This document shows, piece after piece, positions 109 to 36,703 of a stretch of DNA of 43,086 bases. Positions within the stretch are counted from its first letter, which is position 1. Every line of letters begins with the position of its first letter. The position numbers were made by a program, and so were the translations under genes. Source of the stretch: a virus; the IMG/VR virus record IMGVR_UViG_3300020281_001005, positions 1 to 43,086 of that record; one strand, given 5' to 3'. Under the pieces are notes generated by a model, which saw only the letters and a list, made by a program, of their open reading frames with translations, had not been told where the DNA came from and made no database searches.

Positions 109-211
109 AGAAAAAATTGAAACTACAGAAGCAAGGATTAAAGAACTCCAGATGCTAATTGAGGCATGGAAAAAATTAATTGAGGAGAAAAAAAAGAATG
201 AATCATCATGA
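98..211 (+). CDS. small coiled-coil protein
   Basis: A 37-residue ORF starts at ATG 98, overlapping the end of the upstream gene by 11 nt, and ends at TGA 209-211, overlapping the start of pcyA by 14 nt. The product is almost entirely charged helix (EEKIETTEARIKELQ then LIEAWKKLIEEKKK), with a heptad-like spacing of I/L residues that predicts a short coiled coil. Coupling by overlap on both sides favours a real gene. No function can be assigned. A small tail or baseplate assembly factor would fit the neighbours but is not shown. Confidence 0.55.
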   Translation: MHLEEKIETTEARIKELQMLIEAWKKLIEEKKKNESS

Positions 212-6619: not shown

Positions 6620-8321
6620 AAAACTTCGATATAAAAATTTTCTGAGTACAGGCAATCAATTTACTGAGATTGTATTTGATAAAAACTCATTTAATACTTT
6701 AGTTGTTGGGAATAATGGTGCTGGTAAAAGTACTATTCTCGATGCTTTAACATTTTCATTATTTGGTAAATCTTATAGGGGTGTAAGTAAGAGTCAGTTA
6801 ATTAATAGTGTTAATGAAAAAGGGACAGAGGTTGAGATTGAGTTTGAGATTGGTACAGTTCAATGGAAGGTTGTAAGATGTATTAAACCAAATAAGTTTA
6901 ATATTTTTAAGAATGATGAGATATTAAATCAAGATGCCCATGCAAATGCACAGCAGACTTGGTTAGAGAATGTAGTTCTTAAGATGAATTACAAATCATT
7001 TACACAGATTGTTATTCTTGGTAGTAGCAATTTTGTTCCTTTTATGCAACTGAGTGCTTCTAATAGAAGAGAGGTTATTGAGGATTTACTTGATATTAAA
7101 ATATTCTCTCAGATGAATTCTGTTCTTAAGGATAAGACTAAAATAGTTAAGGATGAGATTAAACAGTTAGAATATAAATTGATGACTTTGGAGGAGAAGT
7201 ATGAGATGCAGCAATCTTTTATGGATGAGATTGAGGCATTAAGTAAGAAGGATATTAGTAATAAAAAGAAGTCTATTAAGCAACTTATTAAAGAACAGGA
7301 AAATCTACTAGAAGAAGAAAAGGAATTTCAAAAGTCTTTAGAATCTAAGAATAATGAGTTAGAATCTTTTAGAGGATCAAGACAAAAACTTCGTAAGTTA
7401 GGAAACCTTAAAGGAAAAATTACTGAAAAAGTAACGACTATTACTAAAGAACATAAGTTCTTCACAGATAATGTAACATGCCCTACATGTACCCAATCCA
7501 TTGAGGAGGAGTTCAGAATAAATAAAATCAAGGATTCCCAAAATAAGGCAAAAGAGTTGCAATCGGGTTATAAAGAACTCGAAGAGGCAATTAAAGAGGA
7601 AGAGTTGAGGGAGTCCTCTTTTATTAAGATATCCGACGAGGTAACTAATCTAACGCATGGCATTTCTCAAGTTAATACCAAAATCTCTGGATTCAAAAAA
7701 CAAGTCAGAGATCTGGAACAAGAAATTCAAACTCTTACCGATCAACTTGCAGACAGAAATACTGAAAATGAAAAGTTAGCAAACTTTAAAAATCAATTTG
7801 AGATTGCCACGGCAGATGCGGATTCTAGAAAAGATGATATAATAAGGTACAACTTTATATTTGATCTCCTAAAGGATGGTGGTGTCAAAACCAAAATCAT
7901 TAGGAAGTATCTGCCTCTTATCAATCAGCAGGTAAACCGTTATCTTCAGATGATGGACTTCTACATTAACTTCTCATTAGATGAGGAATTTAATGAGTCT
8001 ATCAAATCTCCTATACATGAGGACTTCTCATATTCTTCTTTTAGTGAAGGTGAGAAGATGAGGATTGACTTGGCACTTTTGTTTACGTGGCGAGAAGTTG
8101 CTAAAATAAAGAACTCGTTGAATTGCAACCTCATCATTTTTGATGAGACATTTGATTCTTCTCTCGATGGATTTGGTACAGACGAATTCCTTCGGATCAT
8201 TCGATTTGTGGTAGAGAAGGCAAATATTTTTGTAATCTCTCATAAGGAGGGTTTACAAGATAAATTCTCAAACGTTATTCGATTTGAAAAAATTAAAGGA
8301 TTTAGTAGGATGAAATCATGA
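6606..8321 (+). CDS. 46: gp46 recombination endonuclease subunit (Rad50/SbcC-like)
   Basis: A 571-residue SMC-type ATPase partner of gp47. Walker A is GNNGAGKST (residues 35-43). Two long coiled-coil arms (about 170-285 and 305-400) flank a zinc hook CPTC (C292, C295). The ABC signature is YSSFSEGEKMRIDLAL and Walker B is LIIFDETFDSSLD. The arms are short compared with cellular Rad50, as in T4 gp46 (560 residues). The start overlaps the upstream gene by 14 nt and the stop overlaps the epimerase start by 4 nt. Confidence 0.95.
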   Translation: MITFKKLRYKNFLSTGNQFTEIVFDKNSFNTLVVGNNGAGKSTILDALTFSLFGKSYRGVSKSQLINSVNEKGTEVEIEFEIGTVQWKVVRCIKPNKFNIFKNDEILNQDAHANAQQTWLENVVLKMNYKSFTQIVILGSSNFVPFMQLSASNRREVIEDLLDIKIFSQMNSVLKDKTKIVKDEIKQLEYKLMTLEEKYEMQQSFMDEIEALSKKDISNKKKSIKQLIKEQENLLEEEKEFQKSLESKNNELESFRGSRQKLRKLGNLKGKITEKVTTITKEHKFFTDNVTCPTCTQSIEEEFRINKIKDSQNKAKELQSGYKELEEAIKEEELRESSFIKISDEVTNLTHGISQVNTKISGFKKQVRDLEQEIQTLTDQLADRNTENEKLANFKNQFEIATADADSRKDDIIRYNFIFDLLKDGGVKTKIIRKYLPLINQQVNRYLQMMDFYINFSLDEEFNESIKSPIHEDFSYSSFSEGEKMRIDLALLFTWREVAKIKNSLNCNLIIFDETFDSSLDGFGTDEFLRIIRFVVEKANIFVISHKEGLQDKFSNVIRFEKIKGFSRMKS

Positions 8322-9229
8322 CAAGATCATTAGTAACAGGAGGAGCAGGATTCATAGGATCAAACCTTGTAGATAAACTGCTTGCAGAAGGACATGAGGT
8401 AGTTGTAATTGACAATGAGTATTCTGATGCTCATGATCAGTTCTACTGGAATGATAGAGCAGAGAATCATAAGTTTGATATATGCGACTATGAGAATACA
8501 CGACCATTATATGATGGTGTTGATTACGTATTTCATATTGCAGCAGAAGCAAGAATTCAACCAGCAATTGAGAATCCTATAAGAGCAGTTCAGATTAACT
8601 GTGTAGGTACTACAACAGTATTACAATGTTCTAGGGAAGCAGGTGTTAAGAAAGTGATGTATTCATCTACATCATCTGCTTATGGTATGGGTAAGATACC
8701 AAATGCTGAATGTCATCCAGAAGATTGTTTAAATCCTTATTCAGTATCTAAGGTTGCTGGTGAGAAGTTGTGTAAGATGTATACAGATCTATTTGGTCTT
8801 AAGACAGTTATCTTTAGATACTTTAATGTCTATGGTGAGCGTCAACCATTAAGAGGACAGTATGCTCCTGTTATTGGTATCTTCTTACGTCAAAGAGCAG
8901 CAGGTGAGAAGTTAACTGTTGTTGGTGATGGTGAACAACGTAGAGATTTTACACATGTGTCTGATGTAGTTCATGCAAATTATCTTGCTGCTGTTACAGA
9001 CATTAAAGATGAGGATTATGGTGAAGTTTATAATGTAGGTAATGGTACAAACTATTCTGTTAATCAAGTCGCAAGAATGGTTACATGCCTAGATAGTAGA
9101 ATCACATATATTCCAGAGAGAATTGGTGAAGCAAGAGAAACACTTGCTCAGAATACTTTACTCAAGTTAATCTTTGGTTGGAGACCAACTGTAGATCTGG
9201 AGGATTGGATCAATGGACAAACCAATTGA
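8318..9229 (+). CDS. NAD-dependent sugar-nucleotide epimerase/dehydratase
   Basis: A 303-residue extended short-chain dehydrogenase. The NAD motif TGGAGFIGSNLVD (GxxGxxG) is at residues 7-19, Ser-rich SSTSSAYG is in the active-site region, and the catalytic pair is YSVSKVAGEK (YxxxK). Later motifs are FRYFNVYGERQ and RRDFTHVSDVV, typical of UDP-glucose 4-epimerase/UDP-glucuronate epimerase relatives. It would interconvert NDP-sugars for glycan synthesis, perhaps feeding the glycosyltransferase island at 30-38 kb. It overlaps gp46 by 4 nt, so a sugar gene is embedded in the recombination operon. The substrate cannot be fixed from sequence alone. Confidence 0.9.
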   Translation: MTRSLVTGGAGFIGSNLVDKLLAEGHEVVVIDNEYSDAHDQFYWNDRAENHKFDICDYENTRPLYDGVDYVFHIAAEARIQPAIENPIRAVQINCVGTTTVLQCSREAGVKKVMYSSTSSAYGMGKIPNAECHPEDCLNPYSVSKVAGEKLCKMYTDLFGLKTVIFRYFNVYGERQPLRGQYAPVIGIFLRQRAAGEKLTVVGDGEQRRDFTHVSDVVHANYLAAVTDIKDEDYGEVYNVGNGTNYSVNQVARMVTCLDSRITYIPERIGEARETLAQNTLLKLIFGWRPTVDLEDWINGQTN

Positions 9230-19007: not shown

Positions 19008-19168
19008 AATGTAGAGTACAATTATACGTTGCTGGACAACTCTTTAATGAAGATGTCCACGCAAGAGATTACCAAGAGGCAAAAAAAGTTGCCTTAGCAC
19101 GTAATCCTAATGCTACAGTCGTTAGCGTTAATGCAATTTTCGGAGAATCATTTCAACTAGACCAATGA
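19004..19168 (+). CDS. small conserved-type protein before gp62
   Basis: A 54-residue ORF from ATG 19004 (ATGA overlap with the zinc-ribbon gene) to TGA 19166-19168, which overlaps the gp62 start by 4 nt. The sequence begins MKCRVQLYVAGQLFNEDV and continues ARDYQEAKKVALARNPNATVVSVN, a beta-alpha-beta pattern. No characterised domain is recognised. Overlaps on both sides make translation very likely. Confidence 0.7.
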   Translation: MKCRVQLYVAGQLFNEDVHARDYQEAKKVALARNPNATVVSVNAIFGESFQLDQ

Positions 19169-19548
19169 AAACTGAATTGAAGGAATGGTTAAATTCTATT
19201 AACCAAACCAAGGAGAATCTTACAGAAGATCCTAATGTGATTAAAGATTATCCTCCTTATATTATTAATAAGTGCCTATCTGCACACCTAGATTGCATAC
19301 TCTTTGCTAATGAAATGAACAAATATCCTGCTTTAGACAAGGATATGCAATATAGTTTTTATCTAAATAGTCTCAGGAAACGGAAGAGATTCTCTCCGTG
19401 GATGCGAAAAGATAAGATTAGTAACCTTGACCTTGTTAAACAATACTATGGATATAGTAATGAAAAAGCAATGCAAGCGTTGAATATTTTATCAAAGCAA
19501 CAACTCGAATTTATTAAACAACGACTTGACATTGGAGGAGTGGCGTGA
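19165..19548 (+). CDS. 62: clamp loader small subunit gp62
   Basis: A 127-residue homologue of T4 gp62 (187 residues in T4; cyanophage copies are shorter). The signature region is YIINKCLSAHLDCILFANEMNKYPALDKDMQYSFYLNSLRKRKRFSPWMR, matching the T4 FPECMPAVYAMN..HFNYLM...PRGKRYGKW segment. It completes the clamp loader with gp44. The upstream overlap is 4 nt; the stop overlaps the GTG of regA by 4 nt. Confidence 0.88.
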   Translation: MKTELKEWLNSINQTKENLTEDPNVIKDYPPYIINKCLSAHLDCILFANEMNKYPALDKDMQYSFYLNSLRKRKRFSPWMRKDKISNLDLVKQYYGYSNEKAMQALNILSKQQLEFIKQRLDIGGVA

Positions 19549-19985
19549 CTACTAGCACTATTGAACCACAAGTTAACTGGAAACCTGAGATGATGGTGGA
19601 GGTTATGCTTAACGAACCAGATGATTTCTTAAAAGTCCGTGAGACTTTAACAAGAATTGGAGTAGCATCTAGGAAAGAGAAGAAGTTATATCAATCTTGC
19701 CACATTCTTCATAAGCAAGGTAGATATTATATTACTCACTTCAAAGAATTATTTGCATTAGATGGCAAGCATGCCAACCTTACTGTTAACGATGTTCAGC
19801 GTCGGAACCGTATCGCTCGCTTGCTTTCTGATTGGGGATTGATATCTGTAGTTAATGCAGAGTCTATAGTAGATGTTGCACCTTTGAACCAAATTAAGGT
19901 GTTGGCATACAAAGATAAGAACGATTGGATCCTGGAACAAAAATATAACATCGGTTCTAAGAAAAAAGTGGAGGCTTCTGAATAG
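19545..19985 (+). CDS. regA: RegA translational repressor
   Basis: A 146-residue homologue of T4 RegA, which binds initiation regions of early mRNAs and blocks their translation. The core EVMLNEPDDFLKVRETLTRIGVASRKEKKLYQSCHILHKQGRYYI is nearly the same as T4 over this region, followed by HFKELFALDGK and RRNRIARLLSDWGL. The start is GTG 19545, preceded by GGAGGAG (19534-19540), and it gives an N-terminal extension of about 15 residues compared with T4. The gene lies immediately upstream of the promoter for the phosphorylase gene. Confidence 0.94.
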   Translation: MTTSTIEPQVNWKPEMMVEVMLNEPDDFLKVRETLTRIGVASRKEKKLYQSCHILHKQGRYYITHFKELFALDGKHANLTVNDVQRRNRIARLLSDWGLISVVNAESIVDVAPLNQIKVLAYKDKNDWILEQKYNIGSKKKVEASE

Positions 19986-19991
19986 ATAGGT

Positions 19992-19997
19992 TATAAT
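19992..19997 (+). promoter_or_regulatory. -10 box (TATAAT) before glycogen phosphorylase
   Basis: TATAAT in the 33-nt gap after regA ends 21 nt before ATG 20019, matching the spacing in other gaps. The -35 region (TGGAGG at a 17-nt spacer) is poor. No strong ribosome-binding site is seen (ATAAGAT before the ATG), so expression may be modest. Confidence 0.45.
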
Positions 19998-20018: not shown

Positions 20019-22400
20019 ATGTCTCTACTTAATAATGGTATCAATGATCGTCTATACTACACTCTAGGTAAACGACCCGACAATGCTAGTAAGCATGATT
20101 TCTATATGGCACTTTGTTATGCTGTAAGAGATCAGATGATGTCATACTGGTTAAATAACCAACAGTCTAACGAAAAGGAAGTTGCTTATTTATCCGCAGA
20201 GTTTTTAATTGGACCACAACTTAATAACAATCTTTTAAACCTAGGTCTTAAAAAGGATGCAGAAGAAGCACTAGCAGAGTATGATCAGTGCTTGGATAAG
20301 ATCCTTGATTGTGCAGAGGAACCTGGACTAGGTAATGGTGGTTTAGGTCGTCTTGCAGCGTGTTATATGGAGTCCTTAGCGACTTTAAAGATACCTTCCA
20401 CTGGATATGGTATTAGATATAAGTATGGTATTTTTAAACAGGTAGTTAGAGATAATCAACAAATAGAGATTACAGATAATTGGTTGCATGGAGATTGGCC
20501 TTGGGAATTATCTTATCCAGATGAATCTGTTCATGTTGGGTTTGGTGGTAGAGTAGAGAATTATGTATCAGATCATAATAACTATAGATGTCGTTGGGTT
20601 CCTGAAGAGCAGGTAGTTGCTGTACCCTATGATGTATTGCAGTTAGGATATAGAGTTAACAGTTGTAATAGGATTAGACTTTGGAGAGCAGATGCTACAG
20701 ATGTATTTGACTTCTATGCATTTAATATTGGAGACTATCTTGGTTCAGTAGAACAGAGTGTGTCTTCTGAAACTATCTCCAAGGTATTGTATCCTAATGA
20801 TGGTACAGATCAAGGTAAGAAACTTAGATTAAAACAACAATACTTCTTTGTAAGTGCTTCTCTTCAAGATATGTTTAATAGTCTTGATAGGAGAGGTATT
20901 CCTATTGAGAATTTTGCAGAGCATTATCAAGTACAATTAAATGATACTCATCCATCTGTTGCTGTTGCAGAGTTGATGAGACTTCTTGTAGATGTTAGAC
21001 ATTTAGAGTGGGAAGATGCATGGGAGATAACCCATGCTGCTATAGCATATACAAACCATACTCTTCTTCCAGAGGCATTAGAGAAGTGGGATCTTAGACT
21101 CTTTAAGTCTCTACTGCCACGTCATATGGAGATTATCTATGAGATTAATCGTAGGTTCCTTAATGCTGTTCGTATAAAGTATCCTGCTGATGAATCAATG
21201 TTAGCAAAGATGTCTATTATTGATGAGCATGGTAATAAGTCAGTTCGTATGGCACATCTTGCTACTGTTGGTTCTCATCATGTTAATGGTGTTGCAGCGT
21301 TACATTCTGATCTTATTAAGAAACAATTGATGCCAGAGTTTTATGATATGTGGCCCCATAAGTTTACTAATGTAACTAATGGTGTTACTCCACGTAGATG
21401 GTTGGCATCATGTAATCCAAATCTTGCAACTGTTCTAACTGAAGCAGTTGGTTCGGATTGGGTTACTAATATGGATTTACTAAACCAACTAGATGTTGAT
21501 GATAAGAATCTTTTAGATAAGTTTGCAGAGACCAAGATAATTGGTAAACATCATCTTGCAACTTATATCTTTAACAATCTTGGAATCTGTGTAGATCCTA
21601 GTAGTATGTTTGATGTACACGTTAAACGTATACATGAATATAAGAGACAACATTTACTTGCATTGCAAGTAGTTGCTCAGTATCTTAGAATCAAAAACGG
21701 AAAGGACTTCGTTCCTCGCACAGTAATATTTGGGGGTAAAGCAGCACCTGGATATTATATGGCAAAATTAATCATTCAATTTATTAATCGCATTGCAGAA
21801 ACAATCAATGCAGATCCAGATATGGATGGTAAGTTACGTGTAGTATTCTTACCAAACTATAGTGTTAAATTGGGTGAGAAGGTATATCCTGCTGCTGACT
21901 TATCAGAACAAATCTCTACTGCTGGTAAGGAAGCATCAGGTACAGGTAATATGAAGTTCCAAATGAATGGTGCTTTAACCATCGGTACTCTTGATGGTGC
22001 AAATGTAGAGATACTTGATCTTGTAGGCAAAGAGAACTTCTTCTTGTTTGGTAAAAATGAAGAAGAGATTAGTGATCTTTGGAGACATGGTTATAACCCA
22101 CAAGATCATATGTGTCCAGAGTTATGGGAAGCAGTTAATCTCATACAAGGTGGACACTTTACTCATGGTGATAAAGAAGTATTCAAACCATTAATGGATA
22201 ATCTTTTGCATCATGATCCCTTCTGTGTCATGGCAGATTTTAATGATTACATTGCTGCTCAAGATCGTGTAAGTGATGCATGGAGGGACAAGGATAATTG
22301 GAATCGTATGGCGGTTATCAACACCGCAAGGTCTGGTTTCTTCTCTTCTGATAGATCTATTACGGATTACTGTACTAAAATTTGGGGTATTCCGACCTAG
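20019..22400 (+). CDS. glgP: glycogen/alpha-glucan phosphorylase
   Basis: A full-length 793-residue GT35 phosphorylase (E. coli GlgP 815, MalP 797). It releases glucose-1-phosphate from glycogen using phosphate and PLP. Signature stretches are VAYLSAEFLIGPQL, GLGNGGLGRLAACYMESLATL, GYGIRYKYGIFKQ, QLNDTHPSVAVAELMRLL, NHTLLPEALEKW, TNVTNGVTPRRWL, RIHEYKRQHL and the PLP site EASGTGNMKFQMNGALT with Lys646. The protein ends in FFSSDRSITDYCTKIWGI, as in bacterial enzymes, so it is not truncated. It would draw on host glycogen and feed glucose-phosphate into the pentose phosphate pathway during infection (inference). It sits between regA and hsp20, in the replication block. Confidence 0.97.
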   Translation: MSLLNNGINDRLYYTLGKRPDNASKHDFYMALCYAVRDQMMSYWLNNQQSNEKEVAYLSAEFLIGPQLNNNLLNLGLKKDAEEALAEYDQCLDKILDCAEEPGLGNGGLGRLAACYMESLATLKIPSTGYGIRYKYGIFKQVVRDNQQIEITDNWLHGDWPWELSYPDESVHVGFGGRVENYVSDHNNYRCRWVPEEQVVAVPYDVLQLGYRVNSCNRIRLWRADATDVFDFYAFNIGDYLGSVEQSVSSETISKVLYPNDGTDQGKKLRLKQQYFFVSASLQDMFNSLDRRGIPIENFAEHYQVQLNDTHPSVAVAELMRLLVDVRHLEWEDAWEITHAAIAYTNHTLLPEALEKWDLRLFKSLLPRHMEIIYEINRRFLNAVRIKYPADESMLAKMSIIDEHGNKSVRMAHLATVGSHHVNGVAALHSDLIKKQLMPEFYDMWPHKFTNVTNGVTPRRWLASCNPNLATVLTEAVGSDWVTNMDLLNQLDVDDKNLLDKFAETKIIGKHHLATYIFNNLGICVDPSSMFDVHVKRIHEYKRQHLLALQVVAQYLRIKNGKDFVPRTVIFGGKAAPGYYMAKLIIQFINRIAETINADPDMDGKLRVVFLPNYSVKLGEKVYPAADLSEQISTAGKEASGTGNMKFQMNGALTIGTLDGANVEILDLVGKENFFLFGKNEEEISDLWRHGYNPQDHMCPELWEAVNLIQGGHFTHGDKEVFKPLMDNLLHHDPFCVMADFNDYIAAQDRVSDAWRDKDNWNRMAVINTARSGFFSSDRSITDYCTKIWGIPT

Positions 22401-22484: not shown

Positions 22485-22919
22485 ATGGGCACACTAGCAC
22501 GTTATCACGCAGCTAATCTTCCAGAACTATTTGAGAAGATTACACGGAACAGTATTGGTATGGATGATTATCTCAATCAATTTTGGGATAGTCCTACAAC
22601 AAACTCTAATTATCCACCTTACAATCTAATTCAGGTGAATAATGTCGAATCGAGACTTGAAATCGCCCTTGCGGGGTTTAAGAAAAATGAAGTCAAAGTC
22701 TATACGGAGTTTGGAAAATTATATGTCGAAGGCATCAAGGAAGACAAGGAGACAGATGCAACGTTTGTCCATAAAGGATTGGCCAGCAGGTCTTTCACTA
22801 GGGTCTGGCAAATCACAGATGATACCGAAGTACGAGATGTACGATTCGGAGACGGATTATTGGTAGTTGAACTTGGTAAGGTGGTTCCAGAGCATCATGC
22901 TCGTAAGGACTTCCTATAA
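22485..22919 (+). CDS. hsp20: small heat shock protein Hsp20
   Basis: A 144-residue alpha-crystallin-domain chaperone. The N-terminal region (1-44) is followed by PPYNLIQVNNVESRLEIALAGFKKNEVKVYTEFGKLYVEG, KGLASRSFTRVWQI and VRFGDGLLVVELGKVVPE, the core crystallin strands. Small Hsps hold unfolded proteins; in cyanophages they are near-universal and may protect photosystem or scaffold proteins or help virion assembly. The leader contains two hairpins, one covering the ribosome-binding site (AAGGAG). A terminator follows the gene at 22946. Confidence 0.92.
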   Translation: MGTLARYHAANLPELFEKITRNSIGMDDYLNQFWDSPTTNSNYPPYNLIQVNNVESRLEIALAGFKKNEVKVYTEFGKLYVEGIKEDKETDATFVHKGLASRSFTRVWQITDDTEVRDVRFGDGLLVVELGKVVPEHHARKDFL

Positions 22920-23654: not shown

Positions 23655-26153
23655 ATGAGGTTCTATACGAACGTTCAGATGGTTGGGGACAACTTCTTGG
23701 TTCGTGGTTACGAAGATGGAAAACACTTCGCAACCCGTGAGAAGTTTTACCCAACCCTTTTTGTTGAGTCCCCTAAGAAGAAGACTAACTATAGGACTCT
23801 TGAGGGTTTGCAGGTAGCACCTGTTAAACCTGGAACTGTTCGTGAGACAAGAGAATTTATAAAGAAGTACGAACCTGTACCAGGTTTTGATGTATATGGT
23901 AATGAGAGATTTATTTACCAGTATATCTCAGAGAAATATCCTGAAGATGAATTGAAGTTTGATATTAGTAAAGTTAAACTGGTTACGATTGATATTGAGG
24001 TTGCTTCTGAACAGGGATTCCCTGATGTAGAATCTGCTGCTGAAGAGATTCTTCTTATAACAGTTCAGGATTATACTACTAAAGAGATTATTACTTGGGG
24101 TAATGGTCCTTTTAAAACTCATAAAGATAATCTATATTACAAGCAATTTAATAATGAGTATGATCTACTAAATGATTTTATTAATTGGTGGATGATAGAG
24201 GAGAATACTCCAGAGGTTATTACTGGATGGAATAGTAAGTTGTATGATATTCCATATATTGTTCGTAGGATAGAACGTATTCTTGGTGAGAAATTAATGA
24301 AGCGTATGTCACCTTGGGGATTGGTGACGGAGGATGAAGTTTACATTGCTGGTAGAAAACAAATTGCATATGATATTGGTGGTATATCACAGTTAGATTA
24401 TCTTGATCTTTATAAGAAGTTTACTTATAAGGCACAGGAGTCTTATAGGTTGGATTATATTGCTAGTGTAGAACTTGGTCAGAAGAAGTTAGACCATAGT
24501 GAATTCGACACATTTAAAGACTTCTATACAAAGGGGTGGAAAAAATTCGTAGAGTATAATATAATTGACGTGGAACTTGTTGACCGTATGGAAGGCAAGA
24601 TGAAGTTGATCGAACTCGCACTCACTATGGCATATGAAGCCAAGGTGAATTACGAAGATGTTTTTTATCAAGTTCGTATGTGGGATACGATCATTTATAA
24701 CTATCTAAAGAAGAGGGGTATTGTTATACCTCCAAAAAATAGATCCGATAAAAACGACAAGTATGCGGGGGCGTATGTCAAGGAACCGAAACCAGGACGC
24801 TATGATTGGGTTGTCTCTTTTGACCTTAATAGCTTGTATCCTCATCTTATTATGCAATACAATATCTCGCCCGAAACACTCAGGGAGATTAGACATCCCA
24901 GTGCAAGCGTTGAACGGATTTTAAATAAAGAGTGTGAGTTTGACGGAGAGTTTTCTGTCTGTGCAAATGGAGCACAATATAGGAAGGATATTCGTGGGTT
25001 CCTTCCCGAACTTATGGATAAAATGTATGGAGATCGTGTGATCTTCAAAAAGAAAATGTTGGAGGCAAAGCAAGCTTATGAGAAGACCCCCACTGAGGCA
25101 CTGGAGAAGGAAATTGCAAGGTGCAACAACATCCAGATGGCGAAAAAGATCTCTCTTAATTCTGCTTATGGTGCTATCGGCAATCAGTACTTCAGGTATT
25201 ATAAATTAGCGAACGCAGAAGCTATTACTTTATCTGGACAAGTCTCTATTCGATGGATAGAGAATAAGATGAATGCTTATTTGAATAAACTTATGAAAAC
25301 AGAGGAGGTTGATTATGTTATTGCTTCAGATACTGATTCCATTTACCTTAATTTGGGTGATTTGGTTGAGACTGTATACAAGGGGCGAGAGAAAACTACT
25401 GAGGGCGTTGTTAGGTTCCTTGACCAGGTGTGTGAAACTAAACTTGAACCTTATATTGAAAGTTCTTACGAAGAATTGGCAGGGTACGTCAACGCCTATG
25501 CCCAAAAGATGCAAATGAAGCGAGAGAATATCGCTGAACGTGGTATTTGGACTGCTAAGAAGAGATATATTCTTAATGTATGGAATAGTGAAGGGGTTCA
25601 GTATAATGAACCTAAGTTAAAGATGATGGGTATTGAGGCAGTTAAATCCTCAACTCCTGCACCTTGTCGTACCATGATTAAGGATGCACTTAAACTTATG
25701 ATGAATGGAACAGAAGATGATGTAATTGATTTTATTGATAATGCTCGTAAGAAGTTTAAGACACTTCCACCAGAAGATATTTCTTTTCCAAGATCTGCAA
25801 GTAATGTTGAGAAGTATAGAGCAGTAAATTCGATTTATGCAAAAGGAACTCCTATACATATACGGGGGGCTTTGTTGTTTAACTACTATGTTAAGAAACA
25901 TAAGTTAGACAATAAGTACTCACTCATCAATAATGGTGAGAAGGTTAAATTTTGTTATCTTAAATTACCCAATCCTGTTCATGAGAATGTGATGTCATTT
26001 ATTCAAGACTTCCCTAAGGAACTTGATTTGAACAGCTATGTCGATTATGACTTACAATTTGAGAAGTCTTTTGTAGAACCTCTCAAAGCGATTCTTAATG
26101 CGATTGGTTGGAGTGTAGAAAAAACTGCGACGCTGGAGGCGTTTTTTACCTAA
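23655..26153 (+). CDS. 43: DNA polymerase gp43 (family B)
   Basis: An 832-residue replicative polymerase (898 in T4). The 3'-5' exonuclease motifs are VTIDIEVASEQGFPD (Exo I, DxE), EVITGWNSKLYDIPY (Exo II) and VEYNIIDVELVDRM (Exo III). The polymerase motifs are VSFDLNSLYPHLIMQ (A), KKISLNSAYGAIGNQYF (B) and IASDTDSIYLNLG (C, DTDS). A C-terminal clamp-binding tail ends in KTATLEAFF. The gene is uninterrupted, unlike phages with split or intein-bearing polymerase genes. Its ATG directly follows the Sm-like gene. Confidence 0.97.
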   Translation: MRFYTNVQMVGDNFLVRGYEDGKHFATREKFYPTLFVESPKKKTNYRTLEGLQVAPVKPGTVRETREFIKKYEPVPGFDVYGNERFIYQYISEKYPEDELKFDISKVKLVTIDIEVASEQGFPDVESAAEEILLITVQDYTTKEIITWGNGPFKTHKDNLYYKQFNNEYDLLNDFINWWMIEENTPEVITGWNSKLYDIPYIVRRIERILGEKLMKRMSPWGLVTEDEVYIAGRKQIAYDIGGISQLDYLDLYKKFTYKAQESYRLDYIASVELGQKKLDHSEFDTFKDFYTKGWKKFVEYNIIDVELVDRMEGKMKLIELALTMAYEAKVNYEDVFYQVRMWDTIIYNYLKKRGIVIPPKNRSDKNDKYAGAYVKEPKPGRYDWVVSFDLNSLYPHLIMQYNISPETLREIRHPSASVERILNKECEFDGEFSVCANGAQYRKDIRGFLPELMDKMYGDRVIFKKKMLEAKQAYEKTPTEALEKEIARCNNIQMAKKISLNSAYGAIGNQYFRYYKLANAEAITLSGQVSIRWIENKMNAYLNKLMKTEEVDYVIASDTDSIYLNLGDLVETVYKGREKTTEGVVRFLDQVCETKLEPYIESSYEELAGYVNAYAQKMQMKRENIAERGIWTAKKRYILNVWNSEGVQYNEPKLKMMGIEAVKSSTPAPCRTMIKDALKLMMNGTEDDVIDFIDNARKKFKTLPPEDISFPRSASNVEKYRAVNSIYAKGTPIHIRGALLFNYYVKKHKLDNKYSLINNGEKVKFCYLKLPNPVHENVMSFIQDFPKELDLNSYVDYDLQFEKSFVEPLKAILNAIGWSVEKTATLEAFFT

Positions 26154-26362: not shown

Positions 26363-26617
26363 ATGCTTGCTACATTAATTCCTCACGGAAACTATCCAGG
26401 ACTACCACCTCAAGGGCAAATGCTTGCCATTATTATTGGGTTGTTATTGTTCCTGTTGGGTTATGGTATCTACCTAACCTTTGGACCAGGTGGTGAAGAG
26501 TTTATTGATGCAATTGATGAACATGCTAAAATGCATGAACTAGGAATAGCACACACCCATAAGGAAGGCACAGTTCGTGCTATTAGAGCAAAAGAAAAAA
26601 ATAATGAGGAATCATAA
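26363..26617 (+). CDS. psbN: PsbN-like small membrane protein
   Basis: An 84-residue protein with one hydrophobic helix (about 20-40, MLAIIIGLLLFLLGYGIYLTFG). The segment LLGYGIYLTFGPGGEEFIDAIDEH strongly recalls the end of cyanobacterial PsbN (GYALYTAFG...DPFEEH). PsbN (about 43 residues) is a thylakoid protein needed for photosystem II assembly or repair. This copy has an extra N-terminal leader (about 18 residues) and a basic/acidic tail. Identification rests on one short segment, so an unrelated membrane protein remains possible. The stop overlaps the uvsX start by one base. Confidence 0.5.
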   Translation: MLATLIPHGNYPGLPPQGQMLAIIIGLLLFLLGYGIYLTFGPGGEEFIDAIDEHAKMHELGIAHTHKEGTVRAIRAKEKNNEES

Positions 26618-30873: not shown

Positions 30874-31486
30874 TCAAGTAGTAAGGGATTCAACAATACA
30901 TCAATTTGAACAATTGATTGCAAATTTTTATGGTGCTACTTATGGGATAGCAGTTGACTCATGTACTCATGCAATGGAATTGTGTATGAGATTTGAGAAG
31001 TATGATTTTGTAGAAGTACCAACCAATACTTATCTCTCAGTTCCACTCATCATGAAGAAGATTGGAATAAGACAATGGAGATGGGAAGATAATCAGTGGG
31101 AAAAATATTATTATATTGGCAGCACAAATATTGTTGATGCTGCTGTTTGTTTTGAAAAGAATTCATATATTCCTGGTACATATTTTTGCTTAAGTTTTCA
31201 ACAAAGAAAACATCTACCACTAGGACGTGGTGGTATGATTCTTACTGATGATCCCAAGGCATATTATGTACTAAAAAGAATGTCATGTGATGGTAGAGAT
31301 TTTTATAGACCTTGGAGAGATCAAGATATAGACATTATGGGATATCATTATTATATGACACCAGAGAAGGCTTCTGAAGGAATAGATAGATTCCATGAAG
31401 TAGTTAATAAACCTGTTAAGCATTGGACTTATCAGGATTATCCTTATCTTCCTGATATGTCGGTATTTAAGCATGACAAAGTTTGA
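30848..31486 (+). CDS. truncated DegT/DnrJ/EryC1-type sugar aminotransferase
   Basis: A 212-residue PLP-enzyme-like protein. The N-terminal part has ATYGIAVDSCTHAMELCMRF and FVEVPTNTYLSVPLIMKKIG, and the PLP Lys site reads FCLSFQQRKHLPLGRGGMILTDD with K121 in the expected place. Full-length relatives have about 370 residues; this one ends about 90 residues after the Lys, so the C-terminal small domain is missing or much reduced. It may be a minimal active form, or a degraded remnant that still has an intact frame. It overlaps its neighbours by 26 and 14 nt. Confidence 0.7.
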   Translation: MTYTIPLTNQVVRDSTIHQFEQLIANFYGATYGIAVDSCTHAMELCMRFEKYDFVEVPTNTYLSVPLIMKKIGIRQWRWEDNQWEKYYYIGSTNIVDAAVCFEKNSYIPGTYFCLSFQQRKHLPLGRGGMILTDDPKAYYVLKRMSCDGRDFYRPWRDQDIDIMGYHYYMTPEKASEGIDRFHEVVNKPVKHWTYQDYPYLPDMSVFKHDKV

Positions 31487-32351
31487 TGATAAACTAAAAG
31501 GTTTACCTCCTATATTCTATTTGAATATGGATCATAGAACTGAGAGGAAGGAACATCTTGAGAATGAATTTAGTAAATGGGGTATTACAGATTATACTAG
31601 AGTATCTGCAAATAGATTTCATACTTCAAAAATAAATGAATGGGGACGTAAGTTAGATTTAATGTTACTTGCTCCCTCAGATGCATCAATTGTAATGAAT
31701 GAGTTCTGGACATTTATTGATTGGTATAATTCTGGTATCTCTGAAAATATGATATTAATTCAAGATGATCTTGCATTAGATCTAATTGAATATTGGCCTT
31801 TTGATTGGAATACTTTATATAAAAATCTTCCTTATAATTGGGACATAGTACAATTTTATTATTGCCATAATGATTTTTTAAATATGCACCTCTCTCCTAG
31901 AATTGGTGAGAGTTCATCTGCTGCGTGTATTCTGATTAATAGACATTTTGTTGAGAAGTTAATGAGGATGCATCTTCAACCAGATGGTTCATTTAAACTT
32001 GATAATAATTTAAGAGATATTACTATTCCTAGAGAATGTTATAGTAGTGATGATTGGTTAATATATCAGGTTGGAAAATCATATACATTACCTTTACTTT
32101 GTTTAAATCAAAGGTTGGCAACTAGACCTGATAATAGACAAGAAGCAAGTAAAGAAGAAGAGATGTATGATGAAGTAGTTGCTCAATATCATAACAAGTT
32201 ATATGATATACTTGCCACTACTGTTACTAGGAAATGGTGGGAGACTAGTAGTAAAAATTATAGTGTAGATGATATTTTAAGTTGGGGTTCTCCTATACAC
32301 CATGAGATGAGAATTCAATTACCACAGTATGATGGGAAGGGGCCAGTCTGA
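31473..32351 (+). CDS. GT25-like glycosyltransferase paralogue 1
   Basis: A 292-residue member of a six-copy tandem family. It begins FDDKLKGLPPIFYLNMDHRTERKEHLENEF, a good version of the GT25 donor-binding segment (family pattern Y-NLD-RTDR). The acidic motif position reads ILIQDDLALD (about residue 96) instead of MEDD, so metal binding is altered but two Asp remain. It also has FDWNTLYKNLPYNWD and the family C-terminal motif KWWETSSKNYSVDDILSWG. It probably transfers or once transferred a sugar to a glycan. Confidence 0.75.
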   Translation: MTKFDDKLKGLPPIFYLNMDHRTERKEHLENEFSKWGITDYTRVSANRFHTSKINEWGRKLDLMLLAPSDASIVMNEFWTFIDWYNSGISENMILIQDDLALDLIEYWPFDWNTLYKNLPYNWDIVQFYYCHNDFLNMHLSPRIGESSSAACILINRHFVEKLMRMHLQPDGSFKLDNNLRDITIPRECYSSDDWLIYQVGKSYTLPLLCLNQRLATRPDNRQEASKEEEMYDEVVAQYHNKLYDILATTVTRKWWETSSKNYSVDDILSWGSPIHHEMRIQLPQYDGKGPV

Positions 32352-33217
32352 TGCATGAGAAATTAAAAGGACTACCGAAGATAATATATCTAAATTCTAA
32401 ACATCATTCTGAGAGGGATGATGAGATGAAGACTCAGTTTGATTTGTTAGGTATAGAAAATTATGAACGATATGAGAAAGAATATACTAATAAAAATATT
32501 GAAGAAGACTTAGGTCTACATGATTGGTTAAAATTTATAGAAGATGATTTTACTGCTCTAAGTGTAGAAGAGTTATCTATTACATTAGACCATTATAATG
32601 CAATAGTTAAATGGTTAGATACTAGCGATGATGATGTTTGCATCATAATGGACGATGTTGTTAATATGGATACAATAGAATACTGGCATTTTGATTGGGA
32701 AAAATTTTATTATAGACTTCCTTATAACTGGGATTGTATTCAGTTATTTGTCAATTCAACTAACGAACAGATTAGGACATATCTACATCCTTGGAGAAAG
32801 ACATCTAGATCTACTAGATGTTATATGATAACTAGACAGTTTGCTAAGAAGGTAAAGAAGTTCCATTATAAAGATGGTAAGTTCCGTTTATATTATCCAA
32901 ATAAAGATAGGAGTCATTATGAACCTGATGAGGGAAGTGTTGAGGTAACTTTATTTGATTTGGGAATAACTTATAGTTGTCCGTTATTCCGTCTGACAGA
33001 TATGTTTATGGAGAGTGATGAACTTGATATTAGAATGTGTAGAGATAGGTTATCTTCACAAGCAATACAATACTTTTGGAATTATGCAATAAGTGTTCAA
33101 TCAAATGAGGAATTTTTTAATTATGGATATAGTCAGGATTGGAAGAGAATAGTTACCTTTGATATGAAGTCTGAATGGGTTCATCAGAATAAAGAAAAGA
33201 TATTGGTATGGATTTAG
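32351..33217 (+). CDS. GT25-like glycosyltransferase paralogue 2 (divergent)
   Basis: A 288-residue paralogue, overlapping copy 1 by one base. The N-terminal motif is degraded to IIYLNSKHHSERDDEMKTQF and the acidic motif to IIMDDVVNMD (about residue 100), so it lacks the canonical NLD-R--DR and MEDD. The conserved FDWEKFYYRLPYNWDCIQL and the C-terminal NYAISVQSNEEFFNYG remain. It may be non-catalytic, a partner subunit or specificity module, or have shifted function. Confidence 0.7.
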   Translation: MHEKLKGLPKIIYLNSKHHSERDDEMKTQFDLLGIENYERYEKEYTNKNIEEDLGLHDWLKFIEDDFTALSVEELSITLDHYNAIVKWLDTSDDDVCIIMDDVVNMDTIEYWHFDWEKFYYRLPYNWDCIQLFVNSTNEQIRTYLHPWRKTSRSTRCYMITRQFAKKVKKFHYKDGKFRLYYPNKDRSHYEPDEGSVEVTLFDLGITYSCPLFRLTDMFMESDELDIRMCRDRLSSQAIQYFWNYAISVQSNEEFFNYGYSQDWKRIVTFDMKSEWVHQNKEKILVWI

Positions 33218-34110
33218 ATAATAAGTTAAAAGGTATGCCTCATGTATACTACTTTAATCTGGATAATAGAACAGATAGAAGGCAGTATATGGAGAAGCAA
33301 TTTGATAGGTGGGGTATTAAGTATACTAGATTGTCGGGTACTAAGTATCTCGGATCTCAAGTAAAATCTTGGTCTCATTTAATTGTAGATTATGAGAACT
33401 ATACATTACTACCACCCATTGCTGCTAATGCAATAAGTCATCTTGATTTCTTAAAGAAGTGGTATAAAGAATCTAATGATCCTTATCTTATATTGATGGA
33501 GGATGATTATGATTTAAATTGTATTAAGAGATGGCATTTTGATTGGGAATATCTTATGAGTAGACTTCCTTATGATTGGGATTGTCTTCACATGGGATTT
33601 GAGAATCCAGAGGGGATGCCAATGTTTTTACATCCTATACAATCAGCACATGATTTTGGTCCAGTTCTTTTACATAGAGAATATGTTGAGAAACTTATTG
33701 ATCTTCATTGTGTAGGTGATAGATATAGATTATTAAATACGGTTGCTAATGCTGCTTGGAATTCTGGTAAAGCAGTTGCTGGATCTGGAACAGTTGATTA
33801 TTTTATGGTTCATTGTGGTAGAACATATTGTGTTCCTCTTATTACAATAAATCCATCCTTTGGTAGTTTTGAAGATAACAGTGCTCTACAAAAATTTTAT
33901 AGAGAGAGTGGAGATATTAAAGCAAGAAATGCATATTATTTTTGGTGGAAGCATGAACGAGATAGATTTACTTTAGATGACTTCTTTACCTATGGAACTT
34001 CCAAAGATGCAAAGATGACACTGGACACGGAGAAGTTTTTGCATTATGATATAACTAATAAGATGAGTGAAATCTACGGGGAAAAGTATCTGGAAAACTA
34101 TAGACCATGA
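33208..34110 (+). CDS. GT25-like glycosyltransferase paralogue 3 (canonical)
   Basis: A 300-residue paralogue with intact motifs: VYYFNLDNRTDRRQYMEKQF (NLDNRTDR at 17-24), then ILMEDDYDLN (E98, D99, D100), FDWEYLMSRLPYDWDCLHMGFE, GTVDYFMVHCGRTYCVPLI and YFWWKHERDRFTLDDFFTYG. This is the pattern expected for an active retaining or inverting GT25-type enzyme of lipooligosaccharide or protein glycan synthesis. It starts 10 nt inside copy 2. Confidence 0.8.
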   Translation: MDLDNKLKGMPHVYYFNLDNRTDRRQYMEKQFDRWGIKYTRLSGTKYLGSQVKSWSHLIVDYENYTLLPPIAANAISHLDFLKKWYKESNDPYLILMEDDYDLNCIKRWHFDWEYLMSRLPYDWDCLHMGFENPEGMPMFLHPIQSAHDFGPVLLHREYVEKLIDLHCVGDRYRLLNTVANAAWNSGKAVAGSGTVDYFMVHCGRTYCVPLITINPSFGSFEDNSALQKFYRESGDIKARNAYYFWWKHERDRFTLDDFFTYGTSKDAKMTLDTEKFLHYDITNKMSEIYGEKYLENYRP

Positions 34111-35087
34111 CTGTTAAAAAATACGAATTCGCTGATAAGTTAAGGCACTTGCCACATATTCTTTATACCAATGTAAAGTCACAGATTAACAGAAAGCATT
34201 GGATGGAATATCATTTTAGAATTTATGGTATGGCATTTACTAGGATTGAACAACCTCCTATTAAAGATATGCCTAAAGATTTTCATAAGCAATTAGTTGG
34301 GGATTATTCTGATAAAAGTTCTATAATAATTAATTGGTATTCATCTCAGATTTTAGATCTATTGCGTAAGTGGTTAGATGATACTAAAGCAACTGGTGAA
34401 CCTTATATCATTTTAATGGAGGATGATTATGATGTAAGGATCTCAGACTACTGGCATTTTAGTTGGGATTATATGATGGAGCAATTACCTTATGGGTGGG
34501 ATTGTATCCAGTTAGGATTTGAATCTCCAGATGTAGTTCCATTTTATTTGCATCCTACTAAACCAGAGTATTCTCTTGGTGCTACTTTAATGAGTAGACA
34601 TTATGCTGAGAAGTTATTGGATCTTCATTATATTAATGGTAAATATAAATTTGATAATGTAATTGCAAATTCTGTGTATATGAATAGAGAATCTGGAATA
34701 CATGATGGAATGAATTATGATCAGACTTCAGGATCACCAGATTACTTTATAGCACAATCTGGTAATTGTTATTCTCTTCCTATGATACCTATAGTTCCAT
34801 ATTTTTCTGGAGTTAGTGATCATGGAGGTTCTGGAGATGATAATGCTTGGCAAGCAAGACCTAGTTTTTTAAAATGTTATAAAGCATATTGGGAGTGGTG
34901 GACACAGGATAGAGATAACTTTACTTCTGATGAATTTTTTAGTTATGGTAAGGATAATGATAATCTTATGGAGAGGGATATCTCACAATGGAGTGATAAA
35001 TATTTCCTCGAACAAGCACATTCACAACGAAAAGAATTTTTGACTAGATTCGGGTTGGTATTAGACAATCATGGCATTAAAGGATAA
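34107..35087 (+). CDS. GT25-like glycosyltransferase paralogue 4
   Basis: A 326-residue paralogue. The N-terminal motif is weakened (ILYTNVKSQINRKHWMEYHF), but the acidic motif ILMEDDYDVR (about residue 104), FSWDYMMEQLPYGWDCIQLGFE and SPDYFIAQSGNCYSLPMI are kept. It is longest of the six because of insertions near ANSVYMNRESGIHDGMNYDQT. The C terminus has WEWWTQDRDNFTSDEFFSYG followed by a tail. It may use a different donor sugar. Confidence 0.75.
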   Translation: MTVKKYEFADKLRHLPHILYTNVKSQINRKHWMEYHFRIYGMAFTRIEQPPIKDMPKDFHKQLVGDYSDKSSIIINWYSSQILDLLRKWLDDTKATGEPYIILMEDDYDVRISDYWHFSWDYMMEQLPYGWDCIQLGFESPDVVPFYLHPTKPEYSLGATLMSRHYAEKLLDLHYINGKYKFDNVIANSVYMNRESGIHDGMNYDQTSGSPDYFIAQSGNCYSLPMIPIVPYFSGVSDHGGSGDDNAWQARPSFLKCYKAYWEWWTQDRDNFTSDEFFSYGKDNDNLMERDISQWSDKYFLEQAHSQRKEFLTRFGLVLDNHGIKG

Positions 35088-35892
35088 ATTAAAAGGATTA
35101 CCTAGGGTTTATTATTTTAATAATAATAAAGTCCTAGATGAACATATGGACAGGAGTCTAAGTAACTTAGATGTCATGGACTATAGTTGTATGCGTATTA
35201 AGTATACAAGTGAGAATATTTCTGAATGGAAAGATTTAATTTTAAATAGATCAGATTATAAACTTCCTGTTAGTGTTGCTGGATTTTCTATATCAGTTCT
35301 TGAATTTTTAAAGGATTGGTTAGATGTTACAGAGCAGGATCAAGATCCCGAATTAATAATTATGCGGGATACTATTGATTGGGAAGTTGCTCAAACAGAT
35401 CTATCTTATACATGGGATTTTGATTGGAAATATATTCATTCAAGATTACCTTATGATTGGGATTGTTTTCAATTTGGATTTGAGAATTTACATTATATTC
35501 CTTTTTATCTTCATCAGATAATGCCAGCGACTACCTTTGGTCCTTCTCTATTGAATAGGAGATACGTTAAGAAGTTAGTCAGGTTACATTATAAAGATGG
35601 TAAGTATGATCTTAACGGTAAGATTGCAAATTTAAACTTTGGTCTTAAGTCTGGAACAGTTGATTATTTTATAGGTCATAACGGTAAAACTTATTGTCTT
35701 CCTTTACTACCTAATAATCCAAAGTTCTTCCCAAGTAATACTAAAAAGTTTAAGGTAGTACGTGCTTGTAAATTAGCATACTATGATTGGTGGGTTAATG
35801 AGAGTAAGAAGTTTAGTCTTGAAGAGATTTTTACTTATGGTAAAACAAATGATCTTGGTATGATTAGGAAGACTATGAATTATTATAATTGA
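35071..35892 (+). CDS. GT25-like glycosyltransferase paralogue 5 (probably non-catalytic)
   Basis: A 273-residue paralogue. The N-terminal motif is lost (RVYYFNNNKVLDEHMDRSL) and the acidic motif reads IIMRDTIDWE (R99 in place of Glu), with an insertion before FDWKYIHSRLPYDWDCFQFGFE. The family fold motifs GTVDYFIGHNGKTYCLPLL and YDWWVNESKKFSLEEIFTYG remain. Retention of fold but loss of donor and metal motifs suggests a structural or regulatory partner. It overlaps copy 4 by 17 nt. Confidence 0.7.
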   Translation: MALKDKLKGLPRVYYFNNNKVLDEHMDRSLSNLDVMDYSCMRIKYTSENISEWKDLILNRSDYKLPVSVAGFSISVLEFLKDWLDVTEQDQDPELIIMRDTIDWEVAQTDLSYTWDFDWKYIHSRLPYDWDCFQFGFENLHYIPFYLHQIMPATTFGPSLLNRRYVKKLVRLHYKDGKYDLNGKIANLNFGLKSGTVDYFIGHNGKTYCLPLLPNNPKFFPSNTKKFKVVRACKLAYYDWWVNESKKFSLEEIFTYGKTNDLGMIRKTMNYYN

Positions 35893-35893
35893 T

Positions 35894-36703
35894 ATGCTTA
35901 AGTATGATAAAGGTAAATTAAGAAATTTTCCTCATGTATATTATGTCAATCTTGATAATAGAACTGATAGAAAAGAATACATGGAGAAGCAGTTTGAGTT
36001 TTGGAGATTAGATTTTACTAGAGTCTCTTCTTCAAAATATGCTGCGTCTAAAGCAAAAGAGTGGGGAGCAGATAAGGTAACTGGTAAGGTTACTGGTATG
36101 CCAGCATATGTTGTTGGTAATGCAGTTACTCATCTAGAGTTTATGAAGGATTGGTTGAATACCTCAACTGATCCTTGGTTGCTTTTAATGGAAGATGATT
36201 ATGATTTAAATCTATTTCAATATTGGAATTTTAATTGGGATTATCTAATGAATAGAATTCCTTATGATTGGGATTGTCTTCAAATTGGATATGAGTCTAC
36301 TAAGTTTATACCATTCTTTTTACACCCAAAATTAAATCATACTTATTTTGGTCCAGTTATTTTACAAAGAGATTATGTTGAGAAGATATTGGATTTACAT
36401 TCTGATGGAGATAAGTGGAATTTTGAGAAGGTATTAGGAGATAAGAAGTTTAATAAATCTGCTGGAACTGTCGATTATTTTATTGGACATACTGGTAGGA
36501 CATATTGTATTCCATTAATCACTACTAACGATACGCTGACAAGTGGAGAAAATGGTGTTATGATTAATAGAATACATCATAAACATTCTAGACGTGCATA
36601 TTACCATTGGTGGATGACACAACATAAGAAGTTTAGCTTGGATGATTTCTTTACTTATGGTAAAGTAAATGATCATAAGATGATAATCTCAACTATAAAA
36701 TAA
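35894..36703 (+). CDS. GT25-like glycosyltransferase paralogue 6 (canonical)
   Basis: A 269-residue paralogue with canonical motifs: VYYVNLDNRTDRKEYMEKQF (NLDNRTDR at 19-26), LLMEDDYDLN (E100, D101, D102), FNWDYLMNRIPYDWDCLQIGYE, GTVDYFIGHTGRTYCIPLI and YHWWMTQHKKFSLDDFFTYG. It is closest to copy 3. It starts one base after copy 5 and is followed by one base before the amidinotransferase gene. Confidence 0.8.
   Translation: MLKYDKGKLRNFPHVYYVNLDNRTDRKEYMEKQFEFWRLDFTRVSSSKYAASKAKEWGADKVTGKVTGMPAYVVGNAVTHLEFMKDWLNTSTDPWLLLMEDDYDLNLFQYWNFNWDYLMNRIPYDWDCLQIGYESTKFIPFFLHPKLNHTYFGPVILQRDYVEKILDLHSDGDKWNFEKVLGDKKFNKSAGTVDYFIGHTGRTYCIPLITTNDTLTSGENGVMINRIHHKHSRRAYYHWWMTQHKKFSLDDFFTYGKVNDHKMIISTIK

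What the first reader, a model, noticed from the sequence alone, without database searches (positions are those of the whole stretch)
20019..22400. Full-length glycogen phosphorylase as a phage auxiliary metabolic gene
All main GT35 signature regions and the PLP lysine (K646 in EASGTGNMKF) are present and the protein is complete at both ends. It sits inside the core replication block between regA and hsp20, so this is not contaminating host sequence. Known cyanophage carbon genes (talC, zwf, gnd, CP12) push host carbon into the pentose phosphate pathway for nucleotide synthesis; phosphorylase would open glycogen as the feedstock, useful at night. I do not recall glgP as a common cyanophage gene.
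Basis: partly seen in the sequence, partly recalled or inferred. Interest (0 to 1): 0.85.

Follow-up and report, generated by a model that had tools for sequence, protein, structure and literature searches.

The report
Glycogen phosphorylase gene in cyanophages
A virus of photosynthetic bacteria carries an apparently intact gene for the enzyme that breaks down the host's stored sugar, and so do many uncultured relatives although almost no cultured one does, which suggests that such viruses tap the host's carbon reserves to build new virus DNA.

Summary
Window 20019-22400 (+) encodes a complete 793-aa GT35 phosphorylase (PF00343, 1029 bits). Of 34 PLP and active-site positions checked, 29 match muscle phosphorylase, including the catalytic core, and 33 are invariant in 93 distinct viral copies. 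It lies between regA and hsp20 of a T4-like cyanophage; contigs from other samples show the same junctions, so it is not host contamination. New here: the sampled viral copies form one clade on a long stem, are under strong purifying selection (median dN/dS 0.057), and occupy several phage sites: regA/hsp20, behind nrdB, near psbA. A eukaryotic-type phosphomannomutase gene is nearby in 19 of 82 evaluable records, but mostly uses these sites alone. Most likely role: release glucose-1-phosphate from host glycogen for the pentose phosphate pathway and nucleotides. Activity, donor and timing are untested; no marine picocyanobacterial GlgP was obtained, and zwf and gnd were absent from 19 long uncultured contigs.

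The parts
20019..22400 (+). glgP: GT35 alpha-glucan (glycogen) phosphorylase, 793 aa
   Evidence: PF00343 1029 bits; relatives
21930..21959 (+). PLP-lysine motif EASGTGNMKF (residues 638-647); K646 codon at 21954-21956
   Evidence: K646 aligns with muscle K680, invariant in 93 of 93 distinct viral copies
19545..19985 (+). regA translational repressor, upstream border of the slot
   Evidence: PHROG 242, E 5e-64
19165..19548 (+). gp62 clamp loader subunit
   Evidence: PHROG 225, E 4e-49
22485..22919 (+). hsp20, downstream border of the slot
   Evidence: PHROG 432, E 1e-51
23655..26153 (+). gp43 DNA polymerase; 83% identity to P-SSM2 and P-SSM5, places the virus among T4-like cyanophages
19992..19997 (+). 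TATAAT in the 33-base regA-glgP gap, possible -10 element, not tested
   Evidence: Position; no statistical test made

Best explanation
A T4-like cyanophage gene for a functional glycogen phosphorylase without the animal-type control sites. During infection it would phosphorolyse the host's glycogen to glucose-1-phosphate. A mutase (the host's, or in some relatives possibly the neighbouring phage PMM-family enzyme) would make glucose-6-phosphate. That would enter the pentose phosphate pathway, giving NADPH and ribose-5-phosphate for nucleotide synthesis and the phage ribonucleotide reductase. Shown: sequence identity, intact active site, phage location, purifying selection, wide occurrence in viral contigs. 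Inferred: activity, substrate, expression, flux and benefit.
For: Complete GT35 domain. K680, K568, R569, K574, H377, D339, N484, Y573, E672, S674, G675 and T676 (muscle numbering, list recalled) are kept in the window and invariant in 93 of 93 distinct viral proteins. Glycogen-storage-site residues N407, R409, S429 and E433 are kept in 93 of 93, K437 in 91 (R in 2). The muscle AMP-site residues Y75, R309 and R310 have no counterpart, and the alignment to muscle begins after residue 14. Median dN/dS is 0.057 in 39 pairs within 95% clusters, maximum 0.129; pairs with dS outside 0.05-2 were not counted and pairs are not independent. Of 109 distinct glgP records (108 IMG/VR contigs plus S-SCSM2R), 79 have it behind regA, 18 behind nrdB, 6 before psbA, 6 elsewhere. 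talC is in 7 of 19 long contigs. S-SCSM2R carries glgP with CP12, talC, zwf and gnd. Host Prochlorococcus MED4 expresses glgP and oxidative pentose phosphate genes together, peaking at sunset (PMC2663038, passages). A review reports host glycogen phosphorylase among 12 host proteins still made during S-SM1 infection (PMC10452541, one section read).
Against: No activity or expression data. zwf and gnd were found in 0 of 19 long uncultured glgP contigs, by Pfam family and by the S-SCSM2R proteins (with S-SCSM2R itself as positive control in the latter), and CP12 in 1 of 19. So the link to the oxidative branch rests on one isolate and on host enzymes; the contigs are fragments of 20-69 kb. talC is common in cyanophages (recalled), so its presence is weak support. 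In S-SCSM2R the gene lies beside a glycosyltransferase and near a large sugar-nucleotide gene block, which fits another use of glucose-1-phosphate.
Confidence: 0.68

Rival explanations
1. The enzyme is active, but its glucose-1-phosphate goes mainly to UDP-glucose and other sugar nucleotides used to glycosylate phage structures or DNA.
For: The window has a UDP-glucose dehydrogenase-type gene (37706-38920), an epimerase (8318-9229) and six consecutive paralogous ORFs (15 of 15 pairs match), one with a GT25 match just under the cut-off. In S-SCSM2R glgP abuts a family 24 glycosyltransferase and lies near UDP-glucose dehydrogenase, KdsA and KdsB.
Against: In 97 of 109 records glgP lies behind regA in the replication block or behind nrdB. 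Such sugar genes are frequent in cyanophages anyway (recalled).
Confidence: 0.17
2. The enzyme mainly fuels ATP and NADPH by respiration or glycolysis so that infection can run in the dark, rather than nucleotide supply.
For: A Prochlorococcus study proposes stored glycogen, through the oxidative pentose phosphate pathway, as the night-time energy source (PMC2663038, passages). Six of 109 copies lie before psbA; petF is a neighbour in L080, L209 and S-SCSM2R.
Against: Proximity to nrdB in 18 of 109 records points to nucleotide supply; the two uses overlap and cannot be separated here.
Confidence: 0.1
3. Inactive or redundant passenger that spreads by hot-spot recombination.
For: The slots are shared by many accessory genes.
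Against: Low dN/dS, core catalytic residues invariant, no internal stop in 126 viral rows. Rows were picked by similarity, so decayed copies could be missed.
Confidence: 0.04
4. Host contig chimera or contamination.
For: None found.
Against: Same junctions in contigs from several samples, and a complete isolate genome carrying a 72% identical gene.
Confidence: 0.01

Closest known systems
S-SCSM2R 'carbohydrate phosphorylase' (PQ898602, SSCSM2R_260)
   Same: Same viral clade, full length, 71.8% identity
   Different: Different genome site (petF-peroxiredoxin-glgP-glycosyltransferase); no glgP between its regA and the next gene, a small heat-shock protein
Bacterial and cyanobacterial GlgP (PDB 9wvu, Nostoc and Acaryochloris plasmid copies, Gammaproteobacteria, Burkholderiales)
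   Same: About 54-57% identity over nearly the whole chain for the closest ones
   Different: The S-SCSM2R and window proteins begin and end inside the bacterial chains; the viral rows form a separate clade on a stem of about 1 change per site
Cyanophage carbon genes talC, zwf, gnd, CP12
   Same: Host-type carbon enzymes in T4-like cyanophages; all four co-occur with glgP in S-SCSM2R
   Different: glgP acts earlier, on the storage polymer, and was found in one cultured cyanophage record only
Viral glgA (glycogen synthase) of Pacific viromes (PMC4053976, passages)
   Same: Glycogen metabolism gene in marine viruses
   Different: Synthesis direction; the word phosphorylase does not occur in that paper's held main text

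Membership tests
GT35 glycogen/alpha-glucan phosphorylase | PF00343 domain over the curated cut-off, full length | tested here: met
   1029 bits against 27, profile 2-713 of 713
GT35 glycogen/alpha-glucan phosphorylase | PLP-binding lysine and surrounding motif | tested here: met
   K646 = muscle K680, 93 of 93 viral proteins
GT35 glycogen/alpha-glucan phosphorylase | Phosphate and glucose site residues (list recalled from muscle enzyme literature) | tested here: met
   29 of 34 checked positions identical to muscle in the window; Y90, N284, R649, A653 and T671 differ. 33 of 34 are invariant in 93 viral proteins; at N284 91 have Gly, 2 Glu
GT35 glycogen/alpha-glucan phosphorylase | Prefers glycogen over short maltodextrins | tested here: inconclusive
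   13 of 17 storage-site positions identical to muscle. Scores to solved enzymes do not decide: 820 bits muscle, 773 another glycogen phosphorylase entry (9ukq), 764 maltodextrin phosphorylase; no assay
GT35 glycogen/alpha-glucan phosphorylase | Phosphorolysis releasing glucose-1-phosphate | not testable with these tools
   Needs purified protein
Cyanophage auxiliary metabolic gene | Lies in a phage genome between phage core genes | tested here: met
   gp62-regA-glgP-hsp20-gp43
Cyanophage auxiliary metabolic gene | Derived from a cyanobacterial host gene | tested here: inconclusive
   A joint viral plus cyanobacterial clade is not rejected, p-AU 0.434, but not shown; no marine Synechococcus or Prochlorococcus GlgP was in hand
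Cyanophage auxiliary metabolic gene | Expressed and useful during infection | not testable with these tools
   Low dN/dS only
T4-like cyanophage (Kyanoviridae-like) | T4-like replication genes closest to cyanophage records | tested here: met
   gp43 83% to P-SSM2 and P-SSM5 and to single-cell marine viruses; PHROG and Pfam
Phosphomannomutase / alpha-phosphoglucomutase neighbour (other contigs, not the window) | PF03332 over cut-off with DxDGT motif | tested here: met
   75-90 bits against 22.4 in six of six ORFs scanned; motif invariant in the five aligned proteins. Substrate not testable

The most novel reading that the evidence does not exclude
Uncultured cyanophages carry mobile glycogen-to-glucose-6-phosphate modules. 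GlgP releases glucose-1-phosphate, and a eukaryotic-type phosphomannomutase homologue, a family not found in the Synechococcus elongatus control genome, acts as alpha-phosphoglucomutase. The pieces are shuffled between the regA-hsp20 slot and the site behind ribonucleotide reductase, so the phage itself links stored carbon to DNA building blocks and frees infection from the host's daily glycogen schedule.
Probability: 0.25. Interest if true: 0.68.

Novelty: new member of a known kind. Interest (0 to 1): 0.48.

Why it matters
It extends the known cyanophage carbon genes back to the host's storage polymer, and shows a gene family with many copies in uncultured viral contigs but one close relative among the phage records searched. 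It makes a testable prediction: infection by glgP-bearing phages should drain host glycogen, most of all in the dark.

Tried and rejected
Chance ORF, chimera and host contamination: rejected.

Donor of the gene: not settled. The one genome-contig scan listed 80 of 111 relatives, none titled as a cyanobacterium. The genome search needs a genome handle as centre and draws no relatives for a virus. A viral-contig scan with two cyanobacterial proteins found none. A scan with universal motifs listed 80 of 217 loci, and those are of the viral type. Cyanobacteria are represented only by plasmid copies (L164, L165, L166) and PDB 9wvu; that 9wvu is cyanobacterial is my reading of its sequence and tree place, no call names the organism.

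Structure model: mean pLDDT 56.5 on 24 sequences, too poor; no fold search was made.

glgP-PMM pairing as a fixed operon: weakened. PMM lies within 4 kb of glgP in 19 of 82 records with over 1.5 kb downstream or hsp20 in view; one search's 27 of 90 also counts records made evaluable by the PMM itself. Only 7 of the 80 listed PMM loci have glgP. In two regA-based samples the fully seen slots held glgP+PMM 2, glgP alone 5, PMM alone 7, neither 112, Fisher p 0.08. Three contigs were there twice; without the repeats 2, 4, 7 and 110, p 0.06. The samples are nearest neighbours of one regA query each, so not random.

Oxidative pentose phosphate genes beside uncultured glgP: zwf 0 of 19, gnd 0 of 19, CP12 1 of 19.

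Rows dropped: L030 (cut at its 3' end) and copies of the window from the protein set. L166 is truncated (41% of columns) and was left out of the second tree. The first tree used 30 of the 68 viral clusters plus the window, 41 of the 87 bacterial loci held, and two PDB segments. The second used 33 rows. One search counts 109 records after I removed 22 loci that repeat a contig or the window.

Full report
The ORF. Window 20019-22400 on the plus strand is an open frame of 793 codons from ATG to stop. It matches Pfam PF00343 over the full profile at 1029 bits and solved phosphorylases over almost the whole chain. Identity is 48% to human muscle phosphorylase and 56% to PDB 9wvu.

Is it likely to work? 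I mapped residues recalled from the muscle enzyme literature onto the alignment. Of 34 PLP and active-site positions, 29 are identical to muscle in the window; Y90, N284, R649, A653 and T671 differ. The PLP lysine, K568, R569, K574, H377, D339, N484, Y573, E672, S674, G675 and T676 are among the 29, and 33 of the 34 positions are invariant in 93 distinct viral proteins; N284, in the mobile 280s loop, is Gly in 91 and Glu in 2. The AMP-site residues Y75, R309 and R310 have no counterpart, and the N-terminal phosphorylation segment is missing. Of 17 glycogen-storage-site positions 13 are identical to muscle. Within clusters of at least 95% identity the median dN/dS is 0.057 (39 pairs, maximum 0.129). 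None of 126 viral rows has an internal stop; they are 791-804 aa long. These rows repeat some contigs. AlphaFold gave a poor model on the shallow alignment and was not used.

Where it lies. PHROG and Pfam matches give a T4-like cyanophage order: ferredoxin oxidoreductase-type gene, gp19, uvsY, uvsW, gp55, gp47, gp46, cobS-type ATPase, gp44, DNA methyltransferase, gp62, regA, glgP, hsp20, two small ORFs, gp43, uvsX, gp41. The nearest gp43 genes are those of single-cell marine viruses and of P-SSM2 and P-SSM5 at 83%. The host is therefore probably Prochlorococcus or marine Synechococcus (inference; no call gives the sample). P-SSM2 has genes annotated purL and hsp20 after regA and two annotated purM before gp43, without glgP.

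How common it is. Among 50,697 phage records only S-SCSM2R has a close relative (71.8%); the other 20 matches are under 60% and lie in human gut contigs or Salmonella and Escherichia records. For scale, the gp43 search hit 376 records named Synechococcus and 61 named Cyanophage. In IMG/VR, 202 stretches encoded relatives in one scan and 217 in another that overlaps it; 80 were listed each time. Of the 80 listed regA loci nearest to the window's, 5 had glgP, 59 had hsp20 within 1.5 kb without glgP, 5 had hsp20 further away, 10 were too short and 1 had no hsp20. So it is a widespread but optional gene.

Sites. Of 109 distinct glgP records, 79 have it behind regA, 18 behind nrdB, 6 before psbA and 6 elsewhere. 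In the quick tree the psbA-site copies L010, L019 and L046 fall in one group with the window, L006 and L016, which are regA-site copies (SH-aLRT 93). nrdB-site copies fall in two separate starred groups: L202 and L215, joined by S-SCSM2R; and L012, L021, L024, L182, L185. The gene has thus probably moved between sites inside phages. In 50 of 79 regA-site records the start picked by my script, TTG in 48 and GTG in 2, lies before the regA stop, which would suggest coupled translation; in the window a 33-base gap holds a TATAAT. Start codons are not proven.

Phylogeny. All 31 viral rows used form one group (100, starred) on a stem of 1.01 changes per site. In a second tree of 33 rows the stem is 0.97 and a joint viral plus cyanobacterial clade is not rejected, p-AU 0.434. 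Marine picocyanobacterial sequences are missing, so the donor and the date stay open; the long stem could shorten once they are added.

Neighbours. An ORF of the PMM family lies within 4 kb of glgP in 16 of 61 evaluable regA-site, 3 of 9 nrdB-site, 0 of 6 psbA-site and 0 of 6 other records (a looser count gave 27 of 90). In 14 of 109 it is within 10 bases of glgP. Its solved relatives are phosphomannomutases and, more weakly, a protein deposited as alpha-phosphoglucomutase. Of 14 control genomes only Lactococcus lactis rings for the family. It could supply the glucose-1-phosphate to glucose-6-phosphate step, but it sits in the same slots mostly without glgP (7 of 80 listed loci with glgP), so hot-spot sharing explains part of the adjacency. 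Other slot genes are PurS, 2OG-Fe(II) oxygenases and ferredoxin. The window fragment has no PMM match.

Pathway. S-SCSM2R carries glgP with CP12, talC, zwf, gnd, nrdA and nrdB. talC is in 7 of 19 long uncultured glgP contigs; zwf and gnd in none, whether sought by Pfam family or with the S-SCSM2R proteins, which did find themselves; CP12 in 1. These phages may rely on host enzymes for the oxidative steps, or the genes lie outside the fragments. The window has no match to S-SCSM2R TalC, Zwf, Gnd, CP12, NrdA, NrdB or PsbA.

Literature. Searches in the held open-access library; of these 42, 48, 95 and 100 held more papers than were listed. The review PMC10452541 (section 14 read) reports from Waldbauer et al. 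2019 (reference seen; paper not held) that host glycogen phosphorylase is among eight still-made host proteins with homologues in phages or viral metagenome fragments. A mangrove virome paper lists GT35 alpha-glucan phosphorylase (PMC6460857, passage). A prasinovirus paper names a glycogen phosphorylase B under glycosylation (PMC12584671, passage). Two ocean surveys hold no 'phosphorylase' in their main text (PMC4053976, passages; PMC11360552, term search only). In those listings I saw no study devoted to this gene family. Host glgP peaks at sunset in Prochlorococcus MED4 (PMC2663038, passages).

Verdict. The most novel part, a phage-borne glycogen-to-glucose-6-phosphate module in shared hot spots, is possible but not shown.

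Noticed in passing
L031:11573-12277, L043:3336-4049, L175:5109-5861, L024:2955-3668: Phosphomannomutase-family (PF03332) genes are widespread in IMG/VR T4-like phage contigs (541 relatives in a capped scan), in the same slots as glgP; homologues at 56% identity in cultured P-TIM68, S-SSM7 and S-SSM6a lie mostly under 'hypothetical protein'.
   Followed up: partly
window 31473-36703: Six consecutive paralogous ORFs of 269-326 aa (15 of 15 pairs match, 24-47% identity); one has a GT25 match just under the cut-off: probably an expanded glycosyltransferase array.
   Followed up: partly
window 180-890: Full-length match to PHROG 7278, ferredoxin oxidoreductase, near the contig start.
   Followed up: no
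window 26363-26617: Small ORF with a weak, sub-threshold PsbN match between gp43 and uvsX.
   Followed up: no
L285:1456-4196 and L294:5457-9374: Other cargo in the regA-hsp20 slot: five small or middle-sized ORFs in L285, and a 180-aa plus a 1123-aa ORF of unknown function in L294.
   Followed up: no
contig of L052 (G006:C1:32695-33288): The PMM-family match contains one in-frame TAG; whether the gene is broken was not examined.
   Followed up: no
L196, L197, L198: A different arrangement: hsp20 upstream of glgP, and in L196 ORFs resembling regA and gp62 on the opposite strand downstream.
   Followed up: no
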